A DNA stretch of 62,134 nt from an uncultured Clostridia bacterium. GTDB taxonomy: Bacteria; Bacillota; Clostridia; Oscillospirales; Acutalibacteraceae. The stretch covers positions 1 through 62,134 of the forward strand of contig CALWVN010000009.1 of NCBI GenBank assembly GCA_944384995.1, written 5' to 3'. The notes under the pieces were generated by a model. That model did no database searches. It saw only the letters and a list, made by a program, of their open reading frames with translations, and was not told the DNA's origin. Made by a program: the position numbers and the translations under genes. Of this stretch, positions 1,178 through 62,065 are shown piece after piece; the first letter of the stretch is position 1, and each line of letters begins with the position of its first letter.

Positions 1178-1212
1178 TCAGATATCAGAAGTCAGACGTC
1201 AGAGGTCAGATG
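1178..1212 (+). repeat. Heptad array, 5 units
   Basis: Five perfect TCAGANN units in strict register; the variable pairs are TA, AG, CG, GG, TG. It is followed by the core CGGTGCAGACAGGGTTTG. Confidence 0.85.
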
Positions 1213-1270
1213 CGGTGCAGACAGGGTTTGTGCGTTACCGCTACTGTGTGCGGAATCTCGTTGCGCCGTT

Positions 1271-1333
1271 TCTAATCTCTGACCACTGAAATCTGAATTC
1301 TGTCTGCGGGCGGGCACAGAGACCCGCCCCTAC
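1271..1333 (-). repeat. Heptad array plus GTAGGG palindrome
   Basis: Units TCTAATC, TCTGACC, ACTGAAA, TCTGAAT and TCTGTCT (1271-1305) abut a palindrome at 1307-1333. Read on the minus strand the palindrome starts GTAGGGGCGGG and ends CCCGCCCG. Confidence 0.75.
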
Positions 1334-1397
1334 ACAGGCTTGCATAGATTTTGCAGTTTGTGCACCGCCGGAAGCAGTTCCTCCCCGGCTTCTTTTT

Positions 1398-1464
1398 GCG
1401 GCGCGAGCAAGCCCGCGCCCTACGAGGACGTGCAGATTTTCTGTGGGAGCAAACACCGGCCTAC
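1398..1464 (-). repeat. Degenerate copies of the GGAGCAAGC palindrome
   Basis: Two diverged copies of the unit that is better preserved at 2216-2294: GAGCAAGC...CCTAC, then CGTGCAGATTTT and GGGAGCAAAC...CCTAC. Confidence 0.6.
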
Positions 1465-1477
1465 AGTCTCTCCCTCC

Positions 1478-1522
1478 GGGTCGGCGGCAAGCCGCCGACC
1501 CACCTCCCTCATCAGAGGGAGG
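1478..1522. repeat. Two adjacent perfect hairpins
   Basis: An 11-bp stem with loop AA (1478-1501) is followed by an 8-bp stem CCTCCCTC/GAGGGAGG with loop ATCA (1503-1522). There is no T-tract, so these do not look like ordinary terminators. Confidence 0.7.
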
Positions 1523-1579
1523 AACGAGGTCATGCAGTTTTTCTGCCACGGGAGAAGCCAAGCTGTGCACATCCACACA

Positions 1580-1614
1580 TCCAGCATCCGGTGTCTAACA
1601 CCCGGCGTCTAAGA
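1580..1614 (-). repeat. Degenerate heptad array over the 3' end of the GNAT gene
   Basis: Units TCCAGCA, TCCGGTG, TCTAACA, CCCGGCG and TCTAAGA in register. The complement of TCTAACA supplies the TAG stop of the acetyltransferase, and the last few codons of that gene fall inside the array. Confidence 0.6.
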
Positions 1615-2077
1615 CAATCTCCATATACTGCCGCTGTTTTTTCATGCCGATGGCTTCGTAAAAGCGGATGGCGTCTTCGTTGCACGCCCAGACATTCAAG
1701 TCGAGGTTGTAGCAGTGCAGCTCCTTTGCCGCTTCGACGGCACGTTCCATTAAGGCGCGCCCCACCCCCTGCCCGCGGCAAGTCTTATCCACGCACAGGT
1801 CGTCCACATACAGCGTGCGGTAAGGGCGCTGCGTATAAAAGGGCTCGTCCTTTTCTTCGAGCACGCACATGACGTAGCCGTTGACGCGGCCGTTTGCATC
1901 CACGGAGACAAAAATGCGTTCGTTCTCGTTTCGGAATTTTTCGTGCAGCGCCGCTTCGTCGTATTTCGGGCTTGCACCGGAAAAGATATCGGGTCGCCCC
2001 TCGTGGTGCAGGCGCACGATGTCCTGCAACAATTCGAGCACCCGCGGCGCGTCTTTCTCCTCTGCTTTTCGTATCAT
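1595..2077 (-). CDS. GNAT-family N-acetyltransferase
   Basis: A 160-residue single-domain GNAT protein. The acetyl-CoA binding motif A is TCRGQGVGRALMERAV, preceded by the strand LYVDDLCVD. The C-terminal part DLNVWACNEDAIRFYEAIG is motif B, and it closes with MKKQRQYMEIVL. The order matches RimI/PhnO-like acetyltransferases; the substrate is unknown. Start ATG 2077 has GGAG/GAGG just upstream. The ORF continues open farther 5', but that extension is low-complexity Arg/Pro sequence read from repeats. The stop codon and last few residues come from a heptad array, so the C terminus may have been altered by repeat insertion. Confidence 0.85.
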   Translation of the reverse strand: MIRKAEEKDAPRVLELLQDIVRLHHEGRPDIFSGASPKYDEAALHEKFRNENERIFVSVDANGRVNGYVMCVLEEKDEPFYTQRPYRTLYVDDLCVDKTCRGQGVGRALMERAVEAAKELHCYNLDLNVWACNEDAIRFYEAIGMKKQRQYMEIVLDAGC

Positions 2078-2116
2078 ATCCTCACTCCTAAGAAATGGAA
2101 ATCCTTTCAAAATAGT

Positions 2117-2157
2117 GCGGGCAGGTGTGACCCTGCCCGCTGTTTGTTTTTGTTTTT
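2117..2157 (+). terminator. Terminator-like hairpin with no upstream plus-strand gene
   Basis: A 9-bp stem GCGGGCAGG/CCTGCCCGC followed on the plus strand by a T-rich run to 2157. No plus-strand gene feeds it. On the minus strand it lies between glgA and the GNAT gene and lacks a good T-tract. Confidence 0.5.
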
Positions 2158-2186
2158 CCGCGCCGCGTCCTGCGCGATTCGATTGC

Positions 2187-2213
2187 GGACAGCCGCAAGG
2201 GCTGTCCCTACGG
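2187..2213 (-). repeat. GTAGGGACAG palindrome
   Basis: Arms GGACAGCC/GGCTGTCC around a 5-nt loop, flanked by CCTAC; the minus-strand form begins GTAGGGACAGCC. Confidence 0.8.
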
Positions 2214-2215
2214 GG

Positions 2216-2294
2216 CGTGCAGATTTTCGGCGGGAGCAAGCCCCCGCCCTACGCGGTCGTGCAAATTTTCGGCGGGAGCAAGCCCCCGCCCTAC
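2216..2294 (-). repeat. Tandem pair of GGCGGGAGC palindromic units
   Basis: Two copies (2216-2252 and 2258-2294, period 42 bp) of CGTGCAGATTTTC, GGCGGGAGCAAGC and CCCCGCCCTAC, differing by one base. Related copies lie at 1398-1464, 41676 and 41832. Confidence 0.85.
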
Positions 2295-2340
2295 ACGGTT
2301 CGTGCTGCTTTTTGGCTTTGCAGAAATATGCTGTGCCTTA

Positions 2341-2375
2341 TCTGACATCTGATTTCTGACGTCTGAAGTCTAATC
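2341..2375 (-). repeat. Heptad array, 5 units, containing the glgA stop codon
   Basis: Units TCTGACA, TCTGATT, TCTGACG, TCTGAAG and TCTAATC in perfect register. The complement of the last unit provides the TAG stop of glgA at 2370-2372. Confidence 0.85.
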
Positions 2376-3794
2376 TTTCAATACATCCTTATACAGCCGG
2401 ATATACTCGTTGGCGGATTTGCCCCAGCTGTTGTCGCATTCCATAGCGCGTTTCACGAGAATCTTCCAGCCGTCGGGCTGGGCGTAGCCCTCGAGCGCAC
2501 GGCGGATGGTATAGAGCATCTCGTGCGCGTTGTAATTCGAGAACGTGAAGCCGTTGCCCTCGCCGTCGCCGCTGTCGCGGATGCTGTCGCGCAGGCCTCC
2601 GGTCTCGCGCACGATCGGGATCGAGCCGTAGCGCAGGGCGATCATCTGCGAAAGCCCGCACGGTTCGCTCTTGGAGGGCATTAAGAACAGATCCGAGCCC
2701 GCGTAAATTTTGCGCGAAAGCGACGGCACGAAGCCCAATTTCAGCGCGAGCTTATCCGGGTGCTTTGCCGCCATCGCCTTGAAGAACTCTTCATACTGCC
2801 ATTCGCCGGAACCGAGCACGACCATTTGCACATCCGCCGTGGACAGCAGCTCGTCGAGCACGGCTTTCACGAGGTCGAGCCCTTTATGCCCGACCAAGCG
2901 CGAGACCATGCCCATCAGCGGTACGTCCGCACGCTGCGGCAGGCCCATAAGCTCCTGCAGCGCGCGCTTGTTTTCCGCTTTTGCGGAAAAGTTCTCCGCT
3001 TCGTAATGCGCAAAAATATCCTTGTCCGTCGCGGGGTCGTAATCCTCGGTATCGATGCCGTTGAGAATGCCCGACAGCTTCCACGCGCGCTCGCGCAGGA
3101 TCGTGTCAAGCCCGTGGGAATACCACGGATCCAAGATCTCGTTGGCATACGAGGGGCTGACGGTGGTGACACGGTTGGCGCACTCGATCGCGCCTTTCAT
3201 AAAGTTGACGTCGCCGTCGTATTCGACGATGCTCGTATCCTCGGGGTGAAGCCCCAAAACCTCGGAGATGAGCTCTTTGCCGTACACACCCTGGTACTGG
3301 ATATTATGGATGGTGAAGATCGTTTTGATGTTCTCATAGCCCGGCGCCTGCGCGTACATGGTGCTGTAATACACCGGCGTGAGCGCGGACTGCCAGTCGT
3401 TGCAGTGGATGATGTCGGGCTTGAATTCGATGTGCGGCAGCATTTCAAGCACGGCGCGCGCGAAGAACGCAAAGCGCTCCGCGTCGTCATAATAGCCGTA
3501 GATGCCGTCGCGCTTGAAATAATACTGGTTGTCGAGCAGATAGTAGATGACGCCGTTCGCTTTGGCTTCAAAGATGCCGCAGTACTGCCGCCGCCATGCA
3601 ACGGGCACGGTGATGCTCGTTAAGAACGTCATTTTGTCCTTGAGCTCCTGCTTGATGCCGTCGTACATGGGCATGACCACGCGGCAGCCGATCAGCCGCT
3701 TACGCAGCGCCTTGGGCAGCGAACCCGCCACATCGGCTAGCCCGCCCGACGCCATGAAGGGCAGCGCCTCGCTCGAAACATACAAAACTTTCAT
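2370..3794 (-). CDS. glgA: Glycogen synthase (ADP-glucose)
   Basis: A 474-residue GT5 glycosyltransferase that transfers glucose from ADP-glucose to the non-reducing end of alpha-1,4-glucan. The N terminus MKVLYVSSEALPFMASGGLA carries the family's (K/S)xGG-type loop (here SGGLADV). IIHCNDWQSALTPVY is the conserved HxNDW segment. The C-terminal GT-B half has SKSEPCGLSQMIALRYG with the catalytic Glu. Start ATG 3794 has AAGGAG upstream; an ATG six codons earlier is less well placed. It is the last gene of the glg operon, 56 bp after glgD. Its TAG stop lies inside a heptad array. Confidence 0.95.
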   Translation of the reverse strand: MKVLYVSSEALPFMASGGLADVAGSLPKALRKRLIGCRVVMPMYDGIKQELKDKMTFLTSITVPVAWRRQYCGIFEAKANGVIYYLLDNQYYFKRDGIYGYYDDAERFAFFARAVLEMLPHIEFKPDIIHCNDWQSALTPVYYSTMYAQAPGYENIKTIFTIHNIQYQGVYGKELISEVLGLHPEDTSIVEYDGDVNFMKGAIECANRVTTVSPSYANEILDPWYSHGLDTILRERAWKLSGILNGIDTEDYDPATDKDIFAHYEAENFSAKAENKRALQELMGLPQRADVPLMGMVSRLVGHKGLDLVKAVLDELLSTADVQMVVLGSGEWQYEEFFKAMAAKHPDKLALKLGFVPSLSRKIYAGSDLFLMPSKSEPCGLSQMIALRYGSIPIVRETGGLRDSIRDSGDGEGNGFTFSNYNAHEMLYTIRRALEGYAQPDGWKILVKRAMECDNSWGKSANEYIRLYKDVLKD

Positions 3795-3850
3795 ACGGTT
3801 TCTCCTTTTCACGGGCAGTTTTTCAACCCACCGAATCCACAGACGGTTTC

Positions 3851-4966: not shown

Positions 4967-4969
4967 TGC

Positions 4970-6265: not shown

Positions 6266-8173
<1,908 letters not shown>

Positions 8174-17622: not shown

Positions 17623-17638
17623 AGGTTTCACCTGCAAA

Positions 17639-17673
17639 TTAGATTTTAGATTATAGATGTTAGAAATCAGATG
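17639..17673 (+). repeat. Heptad array, 5 units, directly 5' of the aroE-aroK SD
   Basis: Units TTAGATT, TTAGATT, ATAGATG, TTAGAAA and TCAGATG, then core CGGCATGGGCAGG. It separates the aroE-aroK ribosome-binding site from any upstream promoter. Confidence 0.85.
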
Positions 17674-23279: not shown

Positions 23280-23328
23280 TCAGACGTCAGAGGGCAGAAA
23301 TCAGAATGCAGAGATTGGAAGTCAGAAA
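23280..23328 (+). repeat. Heptad array, 7 units
   Basis: Seven units in one register: TCAGACG, TCAGAGG, GCAGAAA, TCAGAAT, GCAGAGA, TTGGAAG, TCAGAAA. Then GGGCACAGGAAGTTTTT. Confidence 0.8.
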
Positions 23329-23495: not shown

Positions 23496-23500
23496 CGTAC

Positions 23501-23535
23501 AGAGATCAGAATACAGAGATTAGAAGTCAGAAGCG
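23501..23535 (+). repeat. Heptad array, 5 units
   Basis: ACAGAGA, TCAGAAT, ACAGAGA, TTAGAAG and TCAGAAG, then core CGGCGCAGGAAGTTTTT. It follows the 23410 palindrome by 5 bp. A truncated GTAGGGGCGGGG palindrome arm is at 23614-23632. Confidence 0.8.
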
Positions 23536-23652
23536 GCGCAGGAAGTTTTTATGAAAACCGAAAGATTGCGCACTTTTTCGGCTACGAAAAGAACGAAAAA
23601 TCCGTACAGTCCTGTAGGGGCGGGGCTTTGCGTAAACCTCGCCTGCACCGCA

Positions 23653-23687
23653 TCTGATTCCTGATTTTTAACGTCTGATATCTGAAA
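23653..23687 (-). repeat. Heptad array, 5 units
   Basis: TCTGATT, CCTGATT, TTTAACG, TCTGATA and TCTGAAA; the core on the complement is CGGTGCAGGCGAGGTTTACG. It abuts the rplQ terminator. Confidence 0.75.
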
Positions 23688-39912: not shown

Positions 39913-39947
39913 CCAGATGTCAGAAATTAGAAGTCAGAAATCAGATG
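39913..39947 (+). repeat. Heptad array, 5 units
   Basis: CCAGATG, TCAGAAA, TTAGAAG, TCAGAAA and TCAGATG, then core CGGTGTGGGCAGGTTTTC. Confidence 0.85.
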
Positions 39948-39991: not shown

Positions 39992-40017
39992 GTAGGGACA
40001 GCCCTTGCGGCTGTCCG
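39992..40017 (+). repeat. GTAGGGACAG palindrome
   Basis: GTAGGGACAGCC, CTTGC, GGCTGTCCG. It ends the composite repeat begun at 39913 and is followed within 4 bp by another heptad array. Confidence 0.85.
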
Positions 40018-40020
40018 TTA

Positions 40021-40055
40021 TTAGATTTCAGACGTTAGACATCAGAAATCTGATG
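40021..40055 (+). repeat. Heptad array, 5 units
   Basis: TTAGATT, TCAGACG, TTAGACA, TCAGAAA and TCTGATG, then CAGTGCGGACAGGTTTTACG. Confidence 0.8.
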
Positions 40056-41504: not shown

Positions 41505-41530
41505 GTAGGGACAGCCCTTGCGGCTGTCCG
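41505..41530 (+). repeat. GTAGGGACAG palindrome
   Basis: Identical to the 39992 copy: GTAGGGACAGCC, CTTGC, GGCTGTCCG. It closes the composite repeat that began at 41428. A related inverted copy with arms GGACAAGC/GCTTGTCC is at 41590-41614. Confidence 0.85.
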
Positions 41531-41675: not shown

Positions 41676-41808
41676 GGCGGGAGCAAGCCCCCGCCCTACA
41701 GAGCGTGCGGATTTTTGACTTTGTACAAATCTCCTCGTCCCATGTCTAACCTCTAATATCTAACATCTAAAATCTAATACGGTCAGCCGCAAGGGCTGTC
41801 CCTACGGG
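41676..41808 (-). repeat. 133-bp direct repeat, copy 1 (contains heptad array 41745-41779)
   Basis: Contains a GGCGGGAGCAAGC palindrome, the text GTGCGGATTTTTGACTTTG, five perfect TCTAANN units and a GGTCAGCCGC/GGCTGTCC palindrome. The next copy lies exactly 156 bp on. Confidence 0.9.
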
Positions 41809-41831
41809 TTTTGCGGTTCGCACAGTAGTTC

Positions 41832-41964
41832 GGCGGGAGCAAGCCCCCGCCCTACAGAGCGTGCGGATTTTTGACTTTGTACAAATCTCCTCGTCCCATG
41901 TCTAACCTCTAATATCTAACATCTAAAATCTAATACGGACAGCCGCAAGGGCTGTCCGTACGGG
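41832..41964 (-). repeat. 133-bp direct repeat, copy 2 (contains heptad array 41901-41935)
   Basis: Differs from copy 1 at only a few positions near the distal end (GGA for GGT, CCG for CCC). It is a recent tandem duplication with 23 bp between copies. Confidence 0.9.
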
Positions 41965-46706: not shown

Positions 46707-47440
46707 AGATCGTTACGGCAGGCAAGCGCGGCTTCCGCACGCTGAACGCCGAGGTGCGCGAGGCGCTGGAAACGGAAAACGAGGTACGCATTGAAGACGT
46801 GAACGGGCAGCGCTACATCGGCGCGGGGCTCGACTGCGGCAAACGCCTTGAAGTCCATGGCACGCCCGGCAACGACATGGGCGCATACCTGAACGGCGGC
46901 ACGATCGAGGTCTTCGGCAACGGGCAGGAGGCGGTCGGCAACACCATGGGCGGCGGTTCCGTCACCGTGCACGGGCATGTAGGCGACACGCTCGGCTACG
47001 CCATGCGCGACGGTGAAATTTACGTCGAAAAGCGCGCCGGCTCGCGCGCCGGCATCCACATGAAGGAATTCCGCGAGATGCAGCCGGTTGTCGTTATCGG
47101 CGGCACGGTCGGGGCGTTCCTCGGCGAATATATGGCGGGCGGGACGCTCGTCGTTTTAGGGCTCGACCGCGCGGACACGCACCCGATCGTCGGCGCGCAC
47201 TGTGCCACGGGCATGCACGGCGGCCGCATTTTCGTGCGCGGTGAAGTCCCGCAGGAGAATCTCAGCGAACACATTGCCGTGCTTGCGCCCGATGAAAAGG
47301 ATCTTACGGACTTGGACCGCTTTGTACATGAATACTGCGCGCGCTTCGGCGGGGACGCGGCGGAAATTTTAAAAGTCCCGTTCCAAAAGCTCGTACCGAC
47401 CACCTCGCGGCCGTATGCGAATCTGTACACACCGAATTAG
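46703..47440 (+). CDS. Glutamate synthase GXGXG subunit
   Basis: A 245-residue right-handed beta-helix protein, matching the C-terminal domain of GltB. Repeats such as GNDMGAYLNGGTIEVFGNGQ, NTMGGGSVTVHGHVGDTLGY and GTVGAFLGEYMAGGTLVVLG show the G-X-G-X-G pattern. It holds the domains of the enzyme together. The stop codon TAG at 47438-47440 lies inside a heptad repeat unit, so the repeat array begins at the gene's end. Confidence 0.9.
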   Translation: MKIVTAGKRGFRTLNAEVREALETENEVRIEDVNGQRYIGAGLDCGKRLEVHGTPGNDMGAYLNGGTIEVFGNGQEAVGNTMGGGSVTVHGHVGDTLGYAMRDGEIYVEKRAGSRAGIHMKEFREMQPVVVIGGTVGAFLGEYMAGGTLVVLGLDRADTHPIVGAHCATGMHGGRIFVRGEVPQENLSEHIAVLAPDEKDLTDLDRFVHEYCARFGGDAAEILKVPFQKLVPTTSRPYANLYTPN

Positions 47441-47478
47441 ATTTTAGACACTGAACGCCGGATGCCGGATGTGCAACG
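47437..47478 (+). repeat. Heptad array starting at a stop codon
   Basis: TTAGATT, TTAGACA, CTGAACG, CCGGATG, CCGGATG and TGCAACG, then GGCAGGTTTGCGC. The first unit supplies TAG of the GXGXG subunit gene. Confidence 0.7.
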
Positions 47479-47570: not shown

Positions 47571-47612
47571 ACAGAGTTCCGATTTCAGTGGTCAGAAGTC
47601 AGAAATCAGATG
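47571..47612 (+). repeat. Heptad array, 6 units
   Basis: ACAGAGT, TCCGATT, TCAGTGG, TCAGAAG, TCAGAAA and TCAGATG, then core CGGTGTAGGCAGGTTTCACG. Confidence 0.85.
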
Positions 47613-51664: not shown

Positions 51665-52150
51665 ATGCGTTCTGCTCTTTCCGCAAAGCAGCTTTCGTTC
51701 TGCCGCCACTTCGTGCGCACACGCAACGGACGGGAGGCGGCGGCAGCGGCGGGCTTTGCGCTGTTCCCCGAGCGCGCGGCACAGCGGCTGCTTGCAGACA
51801 AACGTGTACGCACGCAGATCGAAACGCTTGAAAAGGACGTCGCCGCCTCGCGCGCGGAGCTCGTGGCGGGCTACCGGCGGCTCGCGTTCGGAAGCGTCTC
51901 GGACGCGGTGCGGCTGCTGCTGTATGAAGCGGGCAACGAACCACTCGACCTCGACCGCCTCGACTTGTTTTTGGTGTCCGACATCAAGCGCCCGAAGGGC
52001 GGCGGCATGGAGATCAAATTCTTTGACCGCCAAAAGGCGCTTGAACGGCTCGAGGAATTGCAGTCGGGCGCTTCGGACGGCGCGCTGCCGTTTTACCGTG
52101 CACTGGAGCGTTCGGCGGCACTGTTTTCGCCGGAAGGCGGCGAGGACTGA
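51665..52150 (+). CDS. Phage terminase small subunit
   Basis: A 161-residue DNA-recognition subunit. It starts MRSALSAKQLSFCRHFVRTR with an HTH-like repeat region (NGREAAAAAGFALFPERAAQ) and has a coiled segment TQIETLEKDVAASRAELVAG before an oligomerisation part. This matches PBSX/P27-type small terminases. GGAGAG precedes the ATG. First gene of the head module; its stop overlaps terL by one base (TGATG). Confidence 0.85.
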   Translation: MRSALSAKQLSFCRHFVRTRNGREAAAAAGFALFPERAAQRLLADKRVRTQIETLEKDVAASRAELVAGYRRLAFGSVSDAVRLLLYEAGNEPLDLDRLDLFLVSDIKRPKGGGMEIKFFDRQKALERLEELQSGASDGALPFYRALERSAALFSPEGGED

Positions 52151-53412
52151 TGCAGCTTTCCGATTTCCATGCATTTTCCCAAAAGCAGCTCGAGCTGCTT
52201 TCGTGGTGGTGCGAAGAAAGCCCCTTTCATTCGTATGACGCCGTCATCTGCGACGGGGCGGTGCGCAGCGGCAAGACCGTGTGTATGTCGCTTTCGTTCG
52301 TGCTGTGGGCGTTCTACCGCTTTTGTGACCAGTCCTTTGCGCTGTGCGGCAAGACCGTGACGGGGCTGCGGCGCAACGTCGTCACGCCGCTGCTGCCGCT
52401 GCTACATGATCTCGGCTTTACCTGCCGCGACTTAAAAAGCCGCAATATGCTTGAGATCACGCGCGGGACGCGGCGCAACCGCTTTTACCTGTTCGGCGGC
52501 AAGGACGAATCCTCCGCCGCGCTCATCCAGGGGCTGACGCTTGCGGGCGTGATGCTCGATGAGGTCGCGCTCATGCCGCGCTCGTTCTGCGAGCAGGCGG
52601 TGGCGCGCTGCTCGGTGGAGGGCTCGCGGCTCTGGTTCAACTGCAACCCCGAGCACCCTGCGCACTGGTTCTACCGCGAATGGATCTTAAAGTGTGCGGA
52701 AAAGAACGGTTTGTACCTGCATTTCACGATGGAGGACAACCCCGCCCTCTCGCGCGCCATGCGCGAGCGATACCGTTCGCTTTACAGCGGGGCATTTTAC
52801 AAGCGCTTTATAGAGGGCAAGTGGACAGCGTGCGACGGGCTGGTGTACCCGTTTTTCGACGAAACGTTCGTGTGCGATGTACCGGAAGGCTTTTCGCGCT
52901 TCACAGTCTCGTGTGACTACGGAACAGTCAACCCCACCTCGATGGGGCTTTGGGGACTGCATGACGGCTGCTGGTACCGCATCGACGAGTTCTACCACGA
53001 TTCAAAGCAGAAAGGCTTTCAGATGACCGACGAGGAATATTACGGTTCGCTTTGCAAGCTCGTCGGCGACAGACCTGTGGATCGTGTCATTGTAGACCCG
53101 TCGGCGGCGTCGTTTCTCGAGTGCATCCGCCGCCACGGCAAATTCAACGTCGCGCGCGCGCAAAACGACGTGCTCGCAGGCATCCGCCGCACGTCGGACG
53201 CCCTGAAATCGGGACGCATCCGCATCTGCCGCACCTGCCCGAATATCCTGCGCGAATTTTCGCTCTACCGATGGGATGAGAGCGCACGGGGCGACGCCGT
53301 GAAAAAGGAGAACGACCACGCCATGGATGACATGCGTTATTTTGTTTCCACGGCGCTCGGCGAGCCGTCCTTGGACGGCTTCGCCGTCGCCATACCCAGA
53401 GAAAGGGGGTGA
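52150..53412 (+). CDS. Phage terminase large subunit
   Basis: A 420-residue packaging motor of the PBSX/terminase_3 type. The ATPase has Walker A-like CDGAVRSGKTVCMSLSF, Walker B AGVMLDEVALM and coupling motif RLWFNCNPEHP. The nuclease has Asp residues in FTVSCDYGTVNPTS, VDRVIVDPSAASFLEC and NDHAMDDMRYFV. All key residues look intact. It cuts and packages DNA into proheads through the portal. Confidence 0.93.
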   Translation: MQLSDFHAFSQKQLELLSWWCEESPFHSYDAVICDGAVRSGKTVCMSLSFVLWAFYRFCDQSFALCGKTVTGLRRNVVTPLLPLLHDLGFTCRDLKSRNMLEITRGTRRNRFYLFGGKDESSAALIQGLTLAGVMLDEVALMPRSFCEQAVARCSVEGSRLWFNCNPEHPAHWFYREWILKCAEKNGLYLHFTMEDNPALSRAMRERYRSLYSGAFYKRFIEGKWTACDGLVYPFFDETFVCDVPEGFSRFTVSCDYGTVNPTSMGLWGLHDGCWYRIDEFYHDSKQKGFQMTDEEYYGSLCKLVGDRPVDRVIVDPSAASFLECIRRHGKFNVARAQNDVLAGIRRTSDALKSGRIRICRTCPNILREFSLYRWDESARGDAVKKENDHAMDDMRYFVSTALGEPSLDGFAVAIPRERG

Positions 53413-53416
53413 CTTT

Positions 53417-54610
53417 TTGCCGATATTCAAAAAGCGTACCGAAGCCTTCTCCGCACCGGTCGGCACGCCCGCCCTCGCGGCGCCGAGCCGCGGCGAAGTG
53501 CAAAACAGGCTGTTTGCCGTACCGCCGCCTACGCTTGCCGGTGATTTGTATCGCGCACTGCGCGAGGCGGTGCCCGTCATCGACGCTGCGATCTATAAGC
53601 TCGTGCGGCTGACGGGCGGCTTTCGGGTGGTGTGCGAAAACGAACGGTTCCAGCCGCTGTTGGACGATTTTTCGGCGGAGGTGCCCACAGACTGCGGCAG
53701 CCACTCGCTGCAGGCCTTTGCCGACTGCTTTTTTGAGCAGCTTCTGACCTACGGCACGGCGGTCGCCGAACTCGTACCCGACGAAACGGGCGCGGTGCGT
53801 TACCTTTACAACGCACCGCAGTCGGATTACCTGCTTCGCCGCGCAAAGGACGATTTTTCGGCGGTGGAGATCTTGCGCAACGACGGCACGCAGGGCGTAC
53901 CGCTGCCGCAGCAGAAAAACCTGCTGTACGTCGCACTCAACGCCCCGCCCGGATCGCTGTACGGCACGTCTGTGCTCCACGGGCTGCCGTTCGTCAGCTC
54001 TGTATTGATGAAAATTTTTAACGCCGTCGGGCAGAATTGGGAGCGCGTCGGGAACGTCCGCTTTGCCGTGACCTATAAGCCGTCGGACGAGGCGGGGTCG
54101 CGTGCCTACGCCAAGGACCGCGCCATGCAGATCGCCGAGCAGTGGAGCGAGGCGATGCGCAGCCGTGATGTGCGGGATTTTGTCGCCGTGGGCGACGTGG
54201 ATATCAAGGTCATCGGCGCGGACAACCAGATTTTAGACAGCGACGTGCCTGTGCGCCAGATGCTCGAACAGATCGTCGCAAAGCTCGGCCTGCCGCCGTT
54301 CATGCTGGGGCTTTCGTGGTCCACGACCGAGCGTATGGCATCCGAGCAGGCGGACATCCTCACCACGGAGATCGAATTTTACCGCCGCGTGCTCACGCCC
54401 GTGCTGTTAAAAATCTGCCGCACGCATCTGCGCGCGTTCGGCTGCACGGACCGCGTGGAGATCGTCTGGGACGATATCACGCTTAAGGACACCGTGGACG
54501 AGGCGACCGCCCGCCACCTTGACGCGCAGACCGACGAGATCCGTGCCGCGCTCGAAAACACGGACGGCAAAACAGACGGAAAGGAGGGAAACCATGCAGA
54601 AAAGCTTTGA
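53417..54610 (+). CDS. Phage portal protein
   Basis: A 397-residue portal (SPP1 gp6/HK97 type). Recognisable parts are LREAVPVIDAAIYKLVRLTG, GTSVLHGLPFVSSVLMKIFN, QMLEQIVAKLGLPPFMLGLS and WSTTERMASEQADILTTEIE. The start is TTG 53417, preceded by AGGGGG within the end of terL; the longer open frame inside terL has no SD. It forms the dodecameric DNA channel of the capsid. It overlaps the protease gene by 17 bp. Confidence 0.88.
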   Translation: MPIFKKRTEAFSAPVGTPALAAPSRGEVQNRLFAVPPPTLAGDLYRALREAVPVIDAAIYKLVRLTGGFRVVCENERFQPLLDDFSAEVPTDCGSHSLQAFADCFFEQLLTYGTAVAELVPDETGAVRYLYNAPQSDYLLRRAKDDFSAVEILRNDGTQGVPLPQQKNLLYVALNAPPGSLYGTSVLHGLPFVSSVLMKIFNAVGQNWERVGNVRFAVTYKPSDEAGSRAYAKDRAMQIAEQWSEAMRSRDVRDFVAVGDVDIKVIGADNQILDSDVPVRQMLEQIVAKLGLPPFMLGLSWSTTERMASEQADILTTEIEFYRRVLTPVLLKICRTHLRAFGCTDRVEIVWDDITLKDTVDEATARHLDAQTDEIRAALENTDGKTDGKEGNHAEKL

Positions 54611-55535
54611 AACCCGGCCCGCAAACCGGGGCGTGACGGACGAAATGCTCCGGGAGATCAACAAATACACCCAGCAGGACCTTACGGCGGATGACGTATT
54701 TGTCTTTTCCGTCCTCCTGTGCGACAACGAGGTCGATCGCGATTTTGAACGGTTTTCGCAAAAAAGCCTGCGCACGCTCGCCGAGCTGTTCCGCGGGAAG
54801 ACCGCCATTCAAAACCACAGCATGGACAGCGCCGACCAGAGCGCGCGCACCTTTTTGACAGAGGTGGTCACGGATGAAACAAAGCGCACATCGCTCGGCG
54901 AGCCGTATACCTATTTAAAAGCGTACTGCTACATGCCGCGCATCGAGAAAAACGAAGCGCGCATCGCCGAGATCAACGCGGGCATTAAAAAGGAGGTCTC
55001 TGTGGGCTGCGCGGTGCGTTCGAGTGTGTGCTCGATCTGCGGCGCGGACGAGCGTGTCTCGCCCTGCAAGCACCGGCGCGGCAAGACCTATAACGGCAAG
55101 GTCTGCCACTACGTGCTTGAAGACCCGACGGATGCCTACGAATGGTCGTTCGTCGCCGTGCCCGCACAGAAAAACGCGGGCGTGACCAAGCACTTCGAAG
55201 CGGCGGCGCAAAAGCTCGGCACGGCGCAAAAGGGCGTAACGCTCACCGCCGCCGAGGCGCGTGCGCTGCGCGATTCGCTCGAGCGCCTGCAAAAGGACGC
55301 CAAGGCGGGCGAACAATACCGCAGCGACCTTTGCGAGACCGCTTCGCGCGGGCTGCTGCGCGCGCTGCCGGCGCTTGACGCATCGCTTGCCAAATCGCTT
55401 TGCGAAGGGCTTGACTGCTCGCAGCTTCGTGCGCTTTCTTGTGCCCTCGCCGAGAAAAACGCGCCGCGCACACCGCAGCTGGCGAGGCCCGCCGACACAC
55501 ACCGCAAAGCGAAAAACGAACGCTTTAAGTTTTAA
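54594..55535 (+). CDS. Prohead protease / scaffold-like protein
   Basis: A 313-residue protein in the position of the prohead protease. The N-terminal half has AIQNHSMDSADQSARTFLTE (possible catalytic His), KKEVSVGCAV (possible Ser) and YEWSFVAVPAQKNAGV, similar to the end of HK97-type proteases. An unusual insert CSICGADERVSPCKHRRGKT could bind a metal. The C-terminal 120 residues are helical and charged, as in a fused scaffold. AAGGAGGG precedes ATG 54594. The protease assignment rests on position and partial motifs. Confidence 0.68.
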   Translation: MQKSFETRPANRGVTDEMLREINKYTQQDLTADDVFVFSVLLCDNEVDRDFERFSQKSLRTLAELFRGKTAIQNHSMDSADQSARTFLTEVVTDETKRTSLGEPYTYLKAYCYMPRIEKNEARIAEINAGIKKEVSVGCAVRSSVCSICGADERVSPCKHRRGKTYNGKVCHYVLEDPTDAYEWSFVAVPAQKNAGVTKHFEAAAQKLGTAQKGVTLTAAEARALRDSLERLQKDAKAGEQYRSDLCETASRGLLRALPALDASLAKSLCEGLDCSQLRALSCALAEKNAPRTPQLARPADTHRKAKNERFKF

Positions 55536-55552
55536 GGAAGGAGAAAAACCCT

Positions 55553-56554
55553 ATGGAAAATTTTGAGACCATCCGCCTGGACAAGGGGCTTTACAGCTCC
55601 CGCAAGGGCTTTACCGCCGAGCTCGAATCCATTGACCCCTCGGAAAACTACAAGGGCACGGAGCTGGAGGGCTTAGACGCCTTTGAGCGTCAGCTCAAGC
55701 GCTTTGACATTCAGATCCACGGCGCGGCAAGCGACTGCGTGGAAAAATTCTTCGCGACGACCGACTCCGCCGCCCTCTTCCCCGAATACATCGCCCGCGC
55801 GGTGCGCAAGGGGCTGGAGGAAGCCGACCTGCTGCCGTACATCGTCGCAACGAAGACCGACATCAACGGCCTCGACTACCGCACCATCACCTCCATTCCT
55901 ACGGAGGATGAAAAGGAGCTCAAGGAAACCGAAGAGGGCGCGGCGATCCCCGAAACCGTCGTACACACGCAGGAAAACCTTGTCACGCTCAAAAAGCGCG
56001 GCAGGATGCTGGTTGCCTCGTACGAGGCGCTGCGCTTCCAGCGGCTCGACCTGTTCACCGTCACGCTGCGCCAGATCGGCGCGTACATCGCCCGCACACA
56101 GCTGAAAGACGCGGTAGACGTACTGCAAAACGGCGACGGCAACTCGAACCCCGCGCCGACGTCCTCGCTTGCAGGCGACAGCGTGACCTACGCCGACCTT
56201 GTGGACTTCTGGAATGAATTTGACCCGTACGGGCTCAACACGATGGTCGCCGCGCCCGACATGGCGGCGGCGATTTTGAAGCTCTCCGAGATGCGCGACG
56301 CGGCGGCGGGGCTTACCTTCCACGGCAGCGGCAAGAGTGTGACACCCCTTGGCGCGACACTTCTCAAAAGCAGTGCTGTCCCTGCCGGCAAGCTCATCGG
56401 TCTCGACCGTACCTGCGCGCTCGAAATGGTGCAGGCGGGCGGCGTGACGACCGAATACGACAAGCTCATCGACCGTCAGCTCGAACGCGCCGCGATCACG
56501 CAGATCTCGGGCTTTGCCAAGATCTACACCGACGCTTCGCGCGTACTCTCGTAA
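55553..56554 (+). CDS. Phage major capsid protein (HK97-like)
   Basis: A 333-residue capsid protein: MENFETIRLDKGLYSSRKGF, an N-terminal delta-like segment up to about residue 60, then LFPEYIARAVRKGLEEADLL, ENLVTLKKRGRMLVASYEAL, the A-domain NTMVAAPDMAAAILKLSEMR and an end in QISGFAKIYTDASRVLS. Order after portal and protease supports the HK97 fold. AAGGAGG precedes the ATG. Confidence 0.85.
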   Translation: MENFETIRLDKGLYSSRKGFTAELESIDPSENYKGTELEGLDAFERQLKRFDIQIHGAASDCVEKFFATTDSAALFPEYIARAVRKGLEEADLLPYIVATKTDINGLDYRTITSIPTEDEKELKETEEGAAIPETVVHTQENLVTLKKRGRMLVASYEALRFQRLDLFTVTLRQIGAYIARTQLKDAVDVLQNGDGNSNPAPTSSLAGDSVTYADLVDFWNEFDPYGLNTMVAAPDMAAAILKLSEMRDAAAGLTFHGSGKSVTPLGATLLKSSAVPAGKLIGLDRTCALEMVQAGGVTTEYDKLIDRQLERAAITQISGFAKIYTDASRVLS

Positions 56555-58228: not shown

Positions 58229-58288
58229 GGTTTCAGATTTTATATTTTTTGCACAGCCGCGGCTTTGCGTAAACCTCCCTGTGCCGCA

Positions 58289-58349
58289 TCTAATCTCTAA
58301 TCTCTAATATCTAACATCTAAAACGGCCAGCCGCAAGGGCTGTCCCTAC
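58289..58349 (-). repeat. Heptad array, 5 units, then GTAGGGACAG palindrome
   Basis: Units TCTAATC, TCTAATC, TCTAATA, TCTAACA and TCTAAAA (58289-58323). The complement-strand core after the array is CGGCACAGGGAGGTTTACGC. A palindrome at 58325-58349 ends CCTAC. Confidence 0.85.
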
Positions 58350-58393
58350 GGATTGCGCGTATTTCGGCTTTACTGCAACTTACCACTCCCGCG

Positions 58394-58428
58394 TCTGATA
58401 TCTAATGTCTAACATCTAAAATCTAAAG
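58394..58428 (-). repeat. Heptad array, 5 units
   Basis: TCTGATA, TCTAATG, TCTAACA, TCTAAAA and TCTAAAG, abutting the galU terminator stem. Confidence 0.85.
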
Positions 58429-58459: not shown

Positions 58460-58486
58460 TTATGATGCTTCTGTTGTATCGTCCGC

Positions 58487-59362
58487 TTACAGCGTGGCGG
58501 CGAGCTTTTTGAGATAAGCCTTGAAGTCCTCGCCGATCTCAGGGTGCGTGAGCGCCACCTCGCAGTTCGCCTGCATAATGCCGAGCTTGTTGCCCATATC
58601 GTAGCGCGTGCCGACAAAATCCACGGCGTTGAGCTTGCCGCGGCGCGCAAGGTCGAGCATCGCGTCGGTGAAATAGACCTCGCCGCTCTTCGGGTCGGCG
58701 GGCGTCTTTTCAATAAGGTCGAAGATCTCAGGCGGCATGACCACGCGGCCTAAGATCGAGTAGCAGGACATGATCTGCTCCGGGGTGGGCTTTTCGATGA
58801 TGTTATGTACCTGCATGACGCGATCCTCCAAAGGCGTCACGTCGAGCGTGCAGTACTTCGGCACGTCCTTGCGCGGGACTTCCTTGACGCCGACCGCACC
58901 GCAGCCGTATTTTTCATACGCGCGGCAAAGCTGCCCGACGACCGGGTCTTCGGAGATGATGACGTCGTCGCCGTACATGACCGCGAACGGCTCGTTGCCG
59001 ACAAAGCTCTTGGCGCACAGCACCGCATGGCCGAGGCCCTTCGTCTCCTTCTGACGGACATAGTAAATGTTTGCCAGATTCGCGCAGGCTTCCACCTGCT
59101 CTAAGATATGTGCCTTCGACGGATTGCCCTGCAGCTTTGCTTCAAGCTCAAAGGAGTGGTCGAAGTGGTCTTCGATAACGCCCTTGCCGCGGTTGGTGAC
59201 AATGAGGATATCCGTGATGCCTGCGGCGACCGCTTCCTCCACGATGTATTGGATGGCGGGTTTGTCCACGATGTTGAGCATTTCCTTCGGGACAGCCTTC
59301 GATGCAGGCAGCACACGCGTGCCAAGCCCGGCGGCAGGGATAACAGCTTTTGTGATTTTCAT
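58487..59362 (-). CDS. galU: UTP--glucose-1-phosphate uridylyltransferase
   Basis: A 291-residue enzyme making UDP-glucose for cell-envelope glycans. The nucleotide loop is AAGLGTRVLPASKAVPKEML; VDKPAIQYIVEEAVAAG, VMYGDDVIISEDPVVGQL and HNIIEKPTPEQIM are further signatures. The C terminus is EDFKAYLKKLAATL. Start ATG 59362 has GAGGA upstream. It competes with GlgC for glucose-1-phosphate. Confidence 0.95.
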   Translation of the reverse strand: MKITKAVIPAAGLGTRVLPASKAVPKEMLNIVDKPAIQYIVEEAVAAGITDILIVTNRGKGVIEDHFDHSFELEAKLQGNPSKAHILEQVEACANLANIYYVRQKETKGLGHAVLCAKSFVGNEPFAVMYGDDVIISEDPVVGQLCRAYEKYGCGAVGVKEVPRKDVPKYCTLDVTPLEDRVMQVHNIIEKPTPEQIMSCYSILGRVVMPPEIFDLIEKTPADPKSGEVYFTDAMLDLARRGKLNAVDFVGTRYDMGNKLGIMQANCEVALTHPEIGEDFKAYLKKLAATL

Positions 59363-59420
59363 GCGCTTTTCCTCGTTTCCGATTAGATTCTTTTTTGAAA
59401 GAAACGTGTCTTACACGCTC

Positions 59421-59449
59421 ATTTTACGACAGAAGATTCAAAATTGCAA
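59421..59449 (-). promoter_or_regulatory. Promoter of galU
   Basis: On the complement, TTGCAA (59444-59449), 17 bp, TAAAAT (59421-59426). It lies within the last codons of the upstream gene. Confidence 0.7.
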
Positions 59450-60434
59450 CCCCAAGAAGCTGCTGCGCCGCAGAATAAATAAAAATTGCGGCGACACACA
59501 GCAGTGCGGATACGCCCCCGCGCCGCAAAAGCCCCAGCCGATAGCGTTCGGGGGATTCGGCGTGCGCGCGCAGATCGGCGATATCCTTTTGCACCTTGCG
59601 CTTGTAAAAATAATTCGCGCAAAGCCCCGCCGCGATATGCAGCACGACGCCGCCCGCAAAAAAGCCGATGGTCTCGGGAAGGGTGTAAAACGCCTGCGCC
59701 TGTGCGAGATACGAAGCCTCATCCAGCGTGCCGGCAAGGTACTGCTGCTGCGCGTCGTAGATCGCCGCAAACGACTCCTGGAAGCGCGGCGTGGCGGTGC
59801 ACAGGCTCAAAAGCACCCCAAGCACCAAAAAAACGGCGCCCGCGGCATAGACCTTGCGGTAAAAGAACCAGTATGGCGTAAACAGGAACGCCGCCCAATT
59901 CCAGCGCACCTTTTTGCGCGTTTTTTCCATTTCATAAAACTTCGGGACATAGCGGCCCGCGCCCATCTGCACATACGCCGCCGTATCCGCGACCGTGTTG
60001 CCGCCGATCGTCTCGTCCGGCGGGATGACGGTGGGCTGCGGTATGCCGTAAGGGGGCTGCTGTGCGCCGTAAGGGGGCTGCATCCCATAAGGCGGCTGTG
60101 CACCGAACGGCGGCTGCTGTGCATTTGGCGCGTGATAAAGCCGTTCGCCGCAGATCGTGCACACGGGCTCTTCTGCGGGGTTTTGGGCGCCGCAGCGCGG
60201 GCAGGTTACCGTGGGCTGCGCGCCATTACGTTTCGCCGACGGCAACGCCTGTTCGGCAGGCTTTTCGGGCTGCCACGCATACCCTTCCTTATGGCGCGCT
60301 TCGTTCGCGCACGCGCCCTTTTCCGCATAGCAAGCGCGGTGGTGCGGCGTGCCGCACACGGGGCAGACAACGATGTCGTCCGTTTCGGTGAACGCTTTGC
60401 CGCAGACCGGGCAGTGCGCGCCTGTATAATTCAT
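59424..60434 (-). CDS. RING/zinc-ribbon membrane protein, DUF2628-like
   Basis: A 336-residue protein of unknown function. Residues 1-45 are a RING-like finger (CPVCGKAFTETDDIVVCPVC then HHRACYAEKGAC). Residues 78-98 are a zinc ribbon (CPRCGAQNPAEEPVCTIC). A Pro/Gln/Tyr/Gly-rich linker has QPPFG and QPPYG repeats. The C-terminal half resembles DUF2628: NWAAFLFTPYWFFYRKVY then hydrophobic segments, ending AALLCVAA-type helices. ATG 60434 (MNYTGAHCPVCG) with AAGG upstream is chosen. A heptad array lies directly 5' of that SD. Confidence 0.78.
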   Translation of the reverse strand: MNYTGAHCPVCGKAFTETDDIVVCPVCGTPHHRACYAEKGACANEARHKEGYAWQPEKPAEQALPSAKRNGAQPTVTCPRCGAQNPAEEPVCTICGERLYHAPNAQQPPFGAQPPYGMQPPYGAQQPPYGIPQPTVIPPDETIGGNTVADTAAYVQMGAGRYVPKFYEMEKTRKKVRWNWAAFLFTPYWFFYRKVYAAGAVFLVLGVLLSLCTATPRFQESFAAIYDAQQQYLAGTLDEASYLAQAQAFYTLPETIGFFAGGVVLHIAAGLCANYFYKRKVQKDIADLRAHAESPERYRLGLLRRGGVSALLCVAAIFIYSAAQQLLGVAILNLLS

Positions 60435-60456
60435 AGGGAAACCTTCTTTCACCTGG

Positions 60457-60491
60457 ACAGAGTTCAGAGGGTAGAAATCAGAGGTTAGACC
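60457..60491 (+). repeat. Heptad array, 5 units, 5' of the RING/DUF2628 gene
   Basis: ACAGAGT, TCAGAGG, GTAGAAA, TCAGAGG and TTAGACC in register, between purB and the SD of the next gene. Confidence 0.75.
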
Positions 60492-60546
60492 ATGTTTTTC
60501 GATCCCCGAGTGCCGGGTTTCGAAACTATGAAAATTTCTTCCCGCT

Positions 60547-60588
60547 TCTGACTTCTGGCTTCTGATTTCTGAATACTGAAATCAGACC
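60547..60588 (-). repeat. Heptad array, 6 units, at the purB stop codon
   Basis: TCTGACT, TCTGGCT, TCTGATT, TCTGAAT, ACTGAAA and TCAGACC. The TGA stop of purB (60582-60584) is in the last unit. Confidence 0.75.
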
Positions 60589-62015
60589 TTGATTTCGACT
60601 TCCAAGCCCAAAAGGTCGCGGTAGCGGTCTAAAATCGGCTGCACGTCGTTTTGCAAAAACTGTGCGACCTGCTGCGGGGCGCGGCCCACAAAGTTCTGCG
60701 GCACAAGCTCGGCGCGCAGTTCCTCGATCGTCATGCCGAACGCGGGGTCGGCGGCAATGCGCTCCAAAAGGTCGTTAGGGCGTCCCTCGACCTTGACAAC
60801 TTTTCCCGCCGCCATGGAGTGTTGGCGGATCCTTTCGTGCAGCTCCTGGCGGTCACCGCCCTTTTTGACGGCAGCCATGAGGATATTTTCGGTTGCCATG
60901 AACGGCAGTTCATCATTTAAGCGTTTTTCGATCATCTTCGGGTAGACGACCAGCCCGCTGACGATGTTGATATACAGTTCTAAGATCGCATCGGTCGCCA
61001 AGAATGCCTCCGGGATGCTGATGCGCTTGTTGGCGGAGTCGTCGAGCGTGCGCTCGAACCACTGGGTCGCCGCGGTGACGGCGGGGTTCGTGGTGTCGGC
61101 GATCACATACCGTGCCAAAGAGGCGATGCGCTCACTGCGCATGGGGTTGCGCTTATACGCCATCGCGGACGAGCCGATCTGATGCGCTTCAAACGGCTCC
61201 TCGATCTCTTTTAAATGCTGCAAAAGCCGCAGGTCGTTCGAGAATTTATGCGCGGACTGTGCGATGCCCGAAAGGACGAACAGCACCTGGCTGTCGAGTT
61301 TTCGCGGATAGGTCTGCCCCGAGACGGGGAAGACGCTCGAAAAGCCCATTTTTTCGGCAATCTTGCGGTCGAGCGCGACGACCTTTTCGGTGTCGCCCTC
61401 GAAAAGCTCCATAAAGCTCGCCTGCGTGCCCGTCGTGCCCTTTGAGCCCAAAAGCCGCATCTGCGAAAGCTGGAACTCAAGCGCGGAGAAGTCCATCAGC
61501 AGATCCATCAGCCACAAGCTTGCGCGCTTGCCGACGGTCGTGGGCTGCGCGGGCTGGAAATGCGTGAACGCAAGGCAGGGCATGGTTTTGTATTCGTCGG
61601 CGAATTTTGCCAGACGGTCTATGAGGTTGACCATCTTTTTGCGGATCAGCCGCAGGCCCTCGGTCATGATGATCACGTCGGTATTGTCGCCGACGTAGCA
61701 CGAGGTTGCCCCTAAGTGGATGATGCCCTTCGCCTTCGGGCACTGCACGCCGTAGGCATACACGTGGCTCATCACGTCGTGGCGCACCTCGCGCTCGCGC
61801 GCTTCTGCAACGTCATAATTGATGTCGTCGGCGTGTGCTTTGAGCTCGGCGATCTGCTCGTCGGTGATGGGCAGCCCCAATTCCTGCTCGCTTTCGGCAA
61901 GGGCGATCCAGAGCTTGCGCCAGGTGCGGAATTTGAAGTCGGGCGAGAAGATGTATTTCATCTCGCGGCTCGCGTAACGCGAATTCAACGGGCTTTCGTA
62001 AACGTCTTTGGACAT
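60582..62015 (-). CDS. purB: Adenylosuccinate lyase
   Basis: A 477-residue fumarase/aspartase-superfamily enzyme acting twice in purine synthesis (SAICAR and adenylosuccinate cleavage). Signatures: KGIIHLGATSCYVGDNTDVI, AFTHFQPAQPTTVGKRASLW (catalytic His) and the family loop IGSSAMAYKRNPMRSERIAS (catalytic Ser). Start ATG 62015 with GGAGG upstream. Heptad arrays bracket the gene: one ends 5 bp from its SD and one contains its stop codon. No other pur genes are nearby. Confidence 0.95.
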   Translation of the reverse strand: MSKDVYESPLNSRYASREMKYIFSPDFKFRTWRKLWIALAESEQELGLPITDEQIAELKAHADDINYDVAEAREREVRHDVMSHVYAYGVQCPKAKGIIHLGATSCYVGDNTDVIIMTEGLRLIRKKMVNLIDRLAKFADEYKTMPCLAFTHFQPAQPTTVGKRASLWLMDLLMDFSALEFQLSQMRLLGSKGTTGTQASFMELFEGDTEKVVALDRKIAEKMGFSSVFPVSGQTYPRKLDSQVLFVLSGIAQSAHKFSNDLRLLQHLKEIEEPFEAHQIGSSAMAYKRNPMRSERIASLARYVIADTTNPAVTAATQWFERTLDDSANKRISIPEAFLATDAILELYINIVSGLVVYPKMIEKRLNDELPFMATENILMAAVKKGGDRQELHERIRQHSMAAGKVVKVEGRPNDLLERIAADPAFGMTIEELRAELVPQNFVGRAPQQVAQFLQNDVQPILDRYRDLLGLEVEIKV

Positions 62016-62030
62016 GGTATTCCTCCGCTT

Positions 62031-62065
62031 TCAGATGTTAGATATTAGACGGTAGAAGTTAGATG
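62031..62065 (+). repeat. Heptad array, 5 units, 5' of the purB SD
   Basis: TCAGATG, TTAGATA, TTAGACG, GTAGAAG and TTAGATG, then core CGGGATGGGCGGGTTTTCGG. A GTAGGGACAG palindrome starts at 62125 and is cut by the window edge. Confidence 0.85.

What the first reader, a model, noticed from the sequence alone, without database searches (positions are those of the whole stretch)
1178..62065. Dispersed heptamer arrays, usually exactly five units of YYRGANN
Twenty-two arrays sit in the intergenic regions. Five positions of each seven are constrained (TCAGA, TTAGA, sometimes CCGGA or GCAGA) and two vary freely between units. Most arrays are five units (35 bp): for example 1178, 2341, 17639, 23501, 39913, 40021, 41745, 41901, 58289, 58394, 60457 and 62031. 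The register is strict even where units are degenerate (seven units at 23280). Free dinucleotides at fixed spacing argue against simple slippage and for recognition every seven bases by a protein or RNA, or a templated addition process.
Basis: seen in the sequence. Interest (0 to 1): 0.8.

Follow-up and report, generated by a model that had tools for sequence, protein, structure and literature searches.

The report
Seven-base repeat borders of intergenic elements
Short blocks of about five seven-base units, each with five fixed and two free positions, border the inserts that fill gaps between genes in this bacterial genome; the same layout with other motifs surrounds a known rRNA-insert gene elsewhere, which points to an overlooked kind of repeat element.

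Summary
My scan finds 19 arrays in the window; Markov sequences average 0.07 and the reversed motif gives 0. The genome has 101 four-unit matches and no control match. Five units is the mode. Neighbouring units share no extra identity, against slippage. Between sister species the GA of each unit changed at 2.9%, NN at 17%, fourfold sites at 13.6%.

The arrays are outer borders of inserts filling gaps between genes: gene | (YYRGANN)5 → core, hairpins, REPs ← array | gene. Of 59 neighbouring same-gap pairs, 18 converge and 1 diverges. At ten loci the array supplies a gene's stop codon; eight of those genes have Pfam matches.

The grammar recurs in another dialect (GCNNAAT, four units). Period-7 arrays flank S23/PF05635 genes 11-fold above other non-ORF sequence. 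In a same-class genome, YYRGANN arrays border a 23S rRNA insert with an S23 gene.

Best reading: borders of S23/IVS-like repeat elements, here without S23. The mover and the recogniser are unknown. Heterogeneous heptamers of Xanthomonas are the closest precedent.

The parts
1178..1212 (+). heptad array, 5 units, TCAGA dialect
1269..1303 (-). degenerate heptad array, 5 units, convergent with 1178
1578..1612 (-). heptad array, 5 units, TTAGA/CCGGA dialect; supplies the stop codon of the acetyltransferase-like ORF 1595-2239; orthologous array in G019
2339..2373 (-). heptad array, 5 units; supplies the stop codon of the starch synthase-like gene 2370-3812; identical in sister species G019
17632..17673 (+). 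heptad array (5 units plus one border unit); conserved in G019 into the fifth unit, sequence beyond it differs
23280..23328 (+). seven-unit degenerate array, conserved in G019
23499..23533 (+). heptad array, 5 degenerate units, convergent with 23651
23651..23685 (-). degenerate heptad array, 5 units
39913..39947 (+). heptad array, 5 units, TCAGA dialect
39992..40016 (+). GTAG-tagged palindromic REP between two arrays
40021..40055 (+). heptad array, 5 units, directly after the REP
41736..41777 (-). heptad array (5 units plus one border unit), copy 1 of a 156-bp tandem duplication
41892..41933 (-). heptad array (5 units plus one border unit), copy 2 of the duplication
47437..47471 (+). degenerate heptad array, 5 units
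47571..47612 (+). heptad array, 6 units, 3 mismatches
58287..58321 (-). heptad array, 5 units, TTAGA dialect
58385..58426 (-). heptad array (5 units plus one border unit), abutting a terminator-like hairpin
60457..60491 (+). left arm of a compact element, just upstream of the zinc-ribbon/RING-like gene 59424-60452 (-)
60457..60586 (+). compact element: array, short hairpin, inverted array; folds as one imperfect stem (-47.9 kcal/mol, z -4.9)
60538..60586 (-). right arm (7 units, 3 mismatches), overlapping the 3' end of the adenylosuccinate lyase-like gene 60582-62015 (-)
62031..62072 (+). heptad array (5 units plus one border unit) 16 nt upstream of the gene 60582-62015 (-)

Best explanation
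The arrays are the outer borders (arms) of inverted-repeat elements that fill gaps between genes. Each border is a fixed-length block of about five heptads read from the gene inward, followed by a short core, hairpins and often REP palindromes; the opposite border, where present, is in inverse orientation. Such elements copy themselves into gene-flanking sites. Their transcripts can fold into an imperfect stem of five-base-pair steps separated by free pairs, and a factor that reads the GA step (or the stem) keeps the units in register. They belong with S23/23S-rRNA intervening-sequence elements, which can have the same heptad borders with an S23 gene inside; in the window's species I found only S23-less forms. 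Shown: layout, orientation, mode of five, GA constraint, period-7 flanks of S23 genes, YYRGANN borders of a 23S insert. Inferred: mobility, the moving enzyme, stem formation and processing in the cell, common descent of the dialects.
For: Orientation: neighbouring arrays in one gap are ++ 24, -- 16, convergent 18, divergent 1; the array start is nearer a predicted ORF than its end in 97 of 120. Gene ends: 15 of 29 abutting predicted 3' ends in two species take their stop codon from the array (10 at offset +4, 5 at +18); 14 of 28 abutting 5' ends lie 14-17 nt from the array, that is, up to the ribosome-binding region. The 15 are ten distinct loci, eight with Pfam matches, among them rRNA dimethylase and diaminopimelate epimerase. 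Constraint: GA 6/204 against fourfold sites 566/4170. Copies: three identical and two near-identical arrays at separate places in G000; 7 identical copies of a GCNNAAT-dialect array in congener G030. S23 link: 34 period-7 hits in the 11.0 kb of non-ORF sequence beside the gene against 4 in 14.5 kb elsewhere, 39 loci; periods 5, 8, 10, 11 and 13 give 0-2 hits near. In G055 both an S23 gene between two inverted arrays and an array pair without S23 occur. 23S rRNA insert with YYRGANN borders in G277, three of four fetched copies with an S23 ORF. Compact element 60457-60586 folds with z -4.9.
Against: G000, G012, G019, G025 and G032 have no PF05635 match, and across 291 class genomes YYRGANN arrays and PF05635 go together only weakly (15 of 37 array genomes, 74 of 254 others; hand count). 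No clean empty site or target duplication was established. NN pairs of the two arms are not complementary in this genus (mean z -0.05, 18 pairs; elsewhere -0.51, 16 pairs), and cognate arms pair little better than foreign ones (-28.0 against -26.5 kcal/mol). YYR positions changed at about the neutral rate (40/306). Many arrays have no detected partner: same-strand neighbours (40 pairs) outnumber convergent ones (18).
Confidence: 0.5

Rival explanations
1. Host regulatory sites: a cellular protein or RNA-binding factor reads the GA step every seven bases at gene ends (a terminator, insulator or stability element), and the arrays are kept for the host.
For: GA constraint; arrays at gene 3' ends and just upstream of starts; arrays beside terminator-like hairpins; published proposal of a translational role for TAACTGA heptamers (PMC4679880, abstract and passages).
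Against: Found in 7 of 35 congeners and very uneven among them; dialects differ between species of one genus; one gap carries arrays of different dialect in the two sister species (L050:18355); equal use at 3' and 5' gene ends (29 and 28); no candidate protein.
Confidence: 0.27
2. Ordinary heptanucleotide microsatellites made by slippage and then mutated.
For: Orthologous arrays that differ by 7 and by 14 bases; heptanucleotides reported as the most abundant class of long repeats in most genomes, with polymerase slippage proposed (cited inside PMC4679880; passages); 131 of 240 TTAGANN arrays in other genomes and viral contigs repeat a single free pair (hand count).
Against: Mode at five units and at four in another dialect; no adjacent-unit homogenisation; GA constrained; strict inward orientation.
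Confidence: 0.08
3. Templated addition: an enzyme (reverse transcriptase or similar) adds seven-base units at gene or element ends.
For: Fixed seven-base step with free pairs; dialects differ by lineage.
Against: Arrays are inherited as blocks between sister species and occur as identical blocks within a genome. No such enzyme was searched for.
Confidence: 0.05
4. REP-associated transposition: arrays ride passively on GTAG-tagged REP/RAYT elements.
For: Arrays often lie next to GTAG REPs, with three array + core + REP units spaced 108 bp.
Against: G031 has 35 such REPs and no array match, G032 has array matches and no such REP; no Y1_Tnp match in G012, G019, G025 and G032.
Confidence: 0.1

Closest known systems
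Xanthomonas heterogeneous heptamer repeats (GGGANTN)n and Nostoc GGGGAYT (PMC4692102; abstract start, passages and section 10 seen)
   Same: Mostly intergenic, seven-base units with free positions, most often four units, 70 and 75 convergent pairs in two genomes, close to the ORF on one side (mean 28 nt) and far on the other (160 nt), sequence and length variation between related species.
   Different: Other motif (G-tract; G-quadruplex proposed); unit number there ranges from 2 to 26. No link to S23 or 23S inserts in the parts I saw.
23S rRNA intervening sequences with S23 protein (PMC4990558 and PMC2672173, passages seen)
   Same: Inverted borders around a short insert or an S23 ORF; [quoted passage not shown]
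   Different: Window elements are intergenic, lack S23, and often have REP-rich interiors.
TAACTGA direct repeats of Beggiatoaceae, Cyanobacteria and Bacteroidetes (PMC4679880; abstract and passages seen)
   Different: One invariant unit; one inverted repeat against 169 direct sets in the main genome.
GTAG-tagged REPs (PMC3733652; listing, start of abstract and a search for taxon names only)
   Same: REPs with this tag occur inside the same inserts.
   Different: Palindromes, not heptads; distributed independently of arrays.

Membership tests
23S IVS / S23 element | lies in a 23S rRNA helix | tested here: not met
   no Rfam family reached its gathering score in the window. The G277 insert does lie in the LSU rRNA gene.
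23S IVS / S23 element | encodes S23/PF05635 protein (some members) | tested here: not met
   0 matches in G000, an 86% complete assembly; an optional feature, absent in the L323 insert too.
23S IVS / S23 element | complementary terminal arms forming a stem | tested here: inconclusive
   compact element z -4.9; 20 arm pairs pair better than shuffled arms (-28.0 against -11.5) but hardly better than foreign arms (-26.5); NN not complementary.
23S IVS / S23 element | excision by RNase III | not testable with these tools
   needs RNA.
heterogeneous heptamer arrays (Xanthomonas type) | heptad units with fixed and free positions, narrow unit number, intergenic | tested here: met
   (136 of 146 outside predicted ORFs)
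heterogeneous heptamer arrays (Xanthomonas type) | convergent pairs near gene ends | tested here: met
   18 convergent, 1 divergent
heterogeneous heptamer arrays (Xanthomonas type) | G-tracts able to form quadruplexes | tested here: not met
   TTAGA and TCAGA make 552 of 702 units and have a single G; the others in the list have at most GG apart from 3 CCGGG
microsatellite | broad unit-number distribution and neighbour homogenisation | tested here: not met
REP/RAYT | palindrome with GTAG tag, and a Y1 transposase in the genome | tested here: not met
   the unit is not a palindrome; no Y1_Tnp match in four array genomes, one weak match in G000; REP counts independent of arrays

The most novel reading that the evidence does not exclude
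A widespread, unnamed class of bacterial mobile elements has ends written in a seven-base grammar (a fixed number of units, five fixed plus two free positions, dialects by lineage). S23-bearing rRNA intervening sequences are its gene-carrying members, and the intergenic arrays here, and perhaps those of Xanthomonas, are gene-less members; the seven-base step reflects the architecture of one recognising machine.
Probability: 0.3. Interest if true: 0.85.

Novelty: new variant of a known kind. Interest (0 to 1): 0.62.

Why it matters
Heptamer repeats have been reported as over-represented in many bacterial genomes, and the explanation offered is polymerase slippage (passages of PMC4679880 and PMC4692102). 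Evidence that one set of them is of near-fixed length, oriented, partly constrained, borders inserts and supplies gene stop codons, and that period-7 arrays surround S23 genes, gives a different hypothesis. It would join three puzzles: heptamer arrays, S23/23S intervening sequences and fast-changing intergenic mosaics. It makes the question of why seven bases testable.

Tried and rejected
Tested and not supported: simple slippage, S23 as a required mover in this genus, RAYT/REP as carrier, NN pairing between arms and a clear cognate-arm preference. A strict search for clean insertions between G000 and G019 printed nothing; of 34 looser gap comparisons I read three in full and others, and saw only complex changes; one G019 insert in a REP might carry a short duplication but is ambiguous. 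A tblastn for S23 in the loci then held hit four, three beside arrays (G277) and one 4.7 kb away. IMG/VR scan: 101 stretches with TTAGANNx4, used in the pooled counts and for two arm pairs. Considered without a test: Rho utilisation (a TC every seven bases on the other strand; its published spacing is recalled) and CsrA. Paper searches: 'intervening sequence' + '23S rRNA' with 'heptanucleotide' 0 papers and with 'heptameric' 2; 'four helix bundle protein' with IVS and inverted repeats 0; 'heptamer' with 'four-helix bundle' and others 0. So in that library and with those terms I found one paper that mentions heptamers in an S23 insert and none that ties them to S23 genes in general.

Full report
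CHECK. In the window, 19 arrays pass a degenerate scan; Markov sequences average 0.07 and the backward motif gives 0. A strict four-unit search of the whole assembly (1.89 Mb, 22 contigs, 86% complete) finds 55 + 46 matches, control 0. A motif-free scan of 343 kb of this genome (stretches chosen because they hold array matches) finds 42 arrays of period 7; the other periods from 4 to 14 give 0 to 5, with 5 at period 12 and 3 at period 14; G019 gives 53 in 320 kb, others 0 to 4. Unit numbers: G000 3:6, 4:16, 5:43, 6:3, 7:4 (72 arrays); G019 41 of 74 with five. The taxon is not shown by any search; the best named DNA match to a 3.9-kb stretch is a Subdoligranulum record at 70% over 31%, so it is probably Clostridia.

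UNIT GRAMMAR. Over 702 units from both species, G4 and A5 are nearly invariant (701 and 697), positions 1-3 are YYR, position 6 takes any base and position 7 is almost never C (3). Positions 1 and 3 go together as T..A or C..G. The first three bases are alike within an array at all distances, while adjacent free pairs are no more alike than in within-array shuffles (G000 44/247 against 40.9 +- 3.9; G019 54/257 against 49.3 +- 4.3). That does not fit stepwise slippage.

EVOLUTION. G019 is syntenic, most blocks at 90-98% identity. Of 72 arrays in G000, 48 have an upstream-anchored alignment that comes to within five bases of the array or enters it in the G019 stretches fetched; over all of these, positions 1 to 7 changed at 14, 9, 10.5, 3, 2.5, 25 and 17%. 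I then dropped 7 short, 10 gapped and 10 REP-anchored pairs, none for low identity. In the 21 left, GA changed at 6/204, YYR at 40/306 and NN at 34/199; fourfold sites in 18 window genes changed at 566/4170 (GA against fourfold p 6e-7; NN against fourfold p 0.17). The G000 arrays were picked for intact units, which should inflate decay at YYR and GA alike, so the low GA rate is conservative; gene conversion between copies is not excluded. Two arrays are identical over five and seven units, one pair differs by 7 bases and one by 14, three have single-base gaps and one is ragged. Interiors of the gaps are often replaced while a border array is kept.

LAYOUT. Of 59 neighbouring same-gap pairs in the two species, 24 are ++, 16 --, 18 convergent and 1 divergent; the array start is nearer to a predicted ORF than the array end in 97 of 120 cases; 10 of 146 arrays lie in ORFs (mechanical ORFs of at least 120 aa, some not genes). 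Of 29 predicted 3' ends abutting an array, 15 take their stop codon from it, at offset +4 (10) or +18 (5), that is TAG of unit 1 or 3; of 28 predicted 5' ends, 14 lie 14-17 nt away and 2 inside (ORFs of at least 150 aa). Any open frame entering a TTAGA array would stop there, so I checked the genes: the 15 are ten distinct loci, and eight have Pfam matches (starch synthase, acetyltransferase, 2-hydroxyacid dehydrogenase, rRNA dimethylase, diaminopimelate epimerase, alpha-amylase, MgtC, GXGXG); two have none. After the array comes a core (YGG..., GGTTT, an AGCCG-type hairpin) and often GTAG-tagged REPs; in L055 three arrays are spaced 108 bp apart. The window holds one compact element, 60457-60586: array, small hairpin, inverted array, between the 5' end of a zinc-ribbon/RING-like gene and the 3' end of an adenylosuccinate lyase-like gene. 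As RNA it folds at -47.9 kcal/mol, z -4.9. Across 20 convergent pairs, arms pair at -28.0 kcal/mol against -11.5 for shuffled arms, but foreign arms do nearly as well (-26.5), and permuting free pairs does not weaken folding in this genus. Generic pairing potential is shown, cognate pairing is not.

DISTRIBUTION. 7 of 35 congeners have four-unit matches, from 2 to 117; the reversed control hits one of the 59 genomes searched (G052, 5 matches). The richest, G019 and G012, are the closest by metG (96 and 93%). Of those at 83-86%, G003, G014, G024 and G031 have none, G007 has 2 and G025 has 9 (G346 was not in the array search); G032, with 9, is at 76%. In the class, 37 of 291 genomes (G000 included) have matches, in 30 of 181 genera; the reversed control hits 16 (hand count), so some hits outside the genus are other repeats.

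OTHER DIALECTS. Congener G030 has no YYRGANN match but 19 matches of ATTNNGC (inward: GCNNAAT), with 8 matches of the reversed control, which may be a further heptad family (AATTACG-like arrays were seen there); G055 of the same order has 24 with control 0; two other genomes have 3 and 1. In 20 loci fetched around them, arrays have four units in 8 of 10 (G030) and 8 of 12 (G055), the rest five with a mismatch allowed; arrays under three units could not be seen. Seven G030 arrays are identical. A grammar of five fixed plus two free positions thus recurs with another motif and another typical number.

S23 AND 23S INSERTS. In G277, four fetched copies of one site carry a YYRGANN array, an insert and an inverted array (degenerate in three); three inserts hold an S23-like ORF and one is short. 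Rfam places the short one, and one with the ORF, inside the large-subunit rRNA gene (the other two were not scanned). From PF05635 loci were fetched (the best-scoring ones); 11 were truncated and dropped. Of 39, 19 have a period-7 array within 300 bp and 10 on both sides; 34 hits lie near against 4 far (long arrays can count more than once); at a stricter cut-off 15 of 39, 25 against 4; other periods give 0-2 near. Per non-ORF kb the excess is 11-fold; 20 of 30 metG loci used as a control give 0. Most of these S23 arrays have motifs other than YYRGANN. Literature passages fit: one IVS has heptameric repeats in front of its S23 ORF with an RNase III site at the first repeat (PMC4990558, passages), and Xanthomonas heptamers form convergent pairs near ORFs, most often of four units (PMC4692102, section 10).

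WHAT SPEAKS AGAINST. The array-rich species have no PF05635 match; the class-wide link between YYRGANN and PF05635 is weak (15 of 37 against 74 of 254; hand count); no empty site with a clear target duplication was seen; no moving enzyme was found, and Y1_Tnp does not track the arrays; same-strand neighbours outnumber convergent pairs.

VERDICT. Real, strongly non-random and partly constrained. As a kind of sequence it is a new variant of published heterogeneous heptamer arrays. The points I did not find in print are the inward-facing border layout with stop codons inside, the typical number per dialect, the GA constraint, and the general link of heptads to S23 genes (searches). The mechanism (mobile inverted-repeat element with a heptad-read border) is the most likely reading but rests on inference for movement and recognition.

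Noticed in passing
G000 contigs C1-C3 against C8, C9, C14, C16, C19 (capped list): Listed array matches cluster on some contigs and none lies on C1-C3; the capped list for G019 is also uneven. This may mark a chromosomal region; contig order is unknown.
   Followed up: no
window 2187-2211, 39992-40016, 41505-41529, 41781-41805, 41937-41961, 58325-58349: GTAG-tagged palindromic REP (GTAGGGACAGCCCTTGCGGCTGTCC, up to 2 mismatches), 41 copies in the genome and 35 in array-free congener G031.
   Followed up: partly
window 41676-41964: 156-bp tandem duplication (98% matches) that includes a heptad array and a hairpin repeat.
   Followed up: no
window 52150-56554: Phage terminase-like and capsid-like genes, so perhaps a prophage or remnant.
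   Followed up: no
G000:C6:12833-13144: Weak Y1 transposase-like match (E 6.4e-6) overlapping one REP copy and near another; possible RAYT-like gene.
   Followed up: no
L462-L471 (G055): GCNNAAT arrays sit beside hairpins of differing sequence that look like terminators, often one on each side (by eye).
   Followed up: partly
units of the G000 and G019 arrays: Positions 1 and 3 of the unit covary (T..A or C..G), with few T..G or C..A; unexplained.
   Followed up: partly
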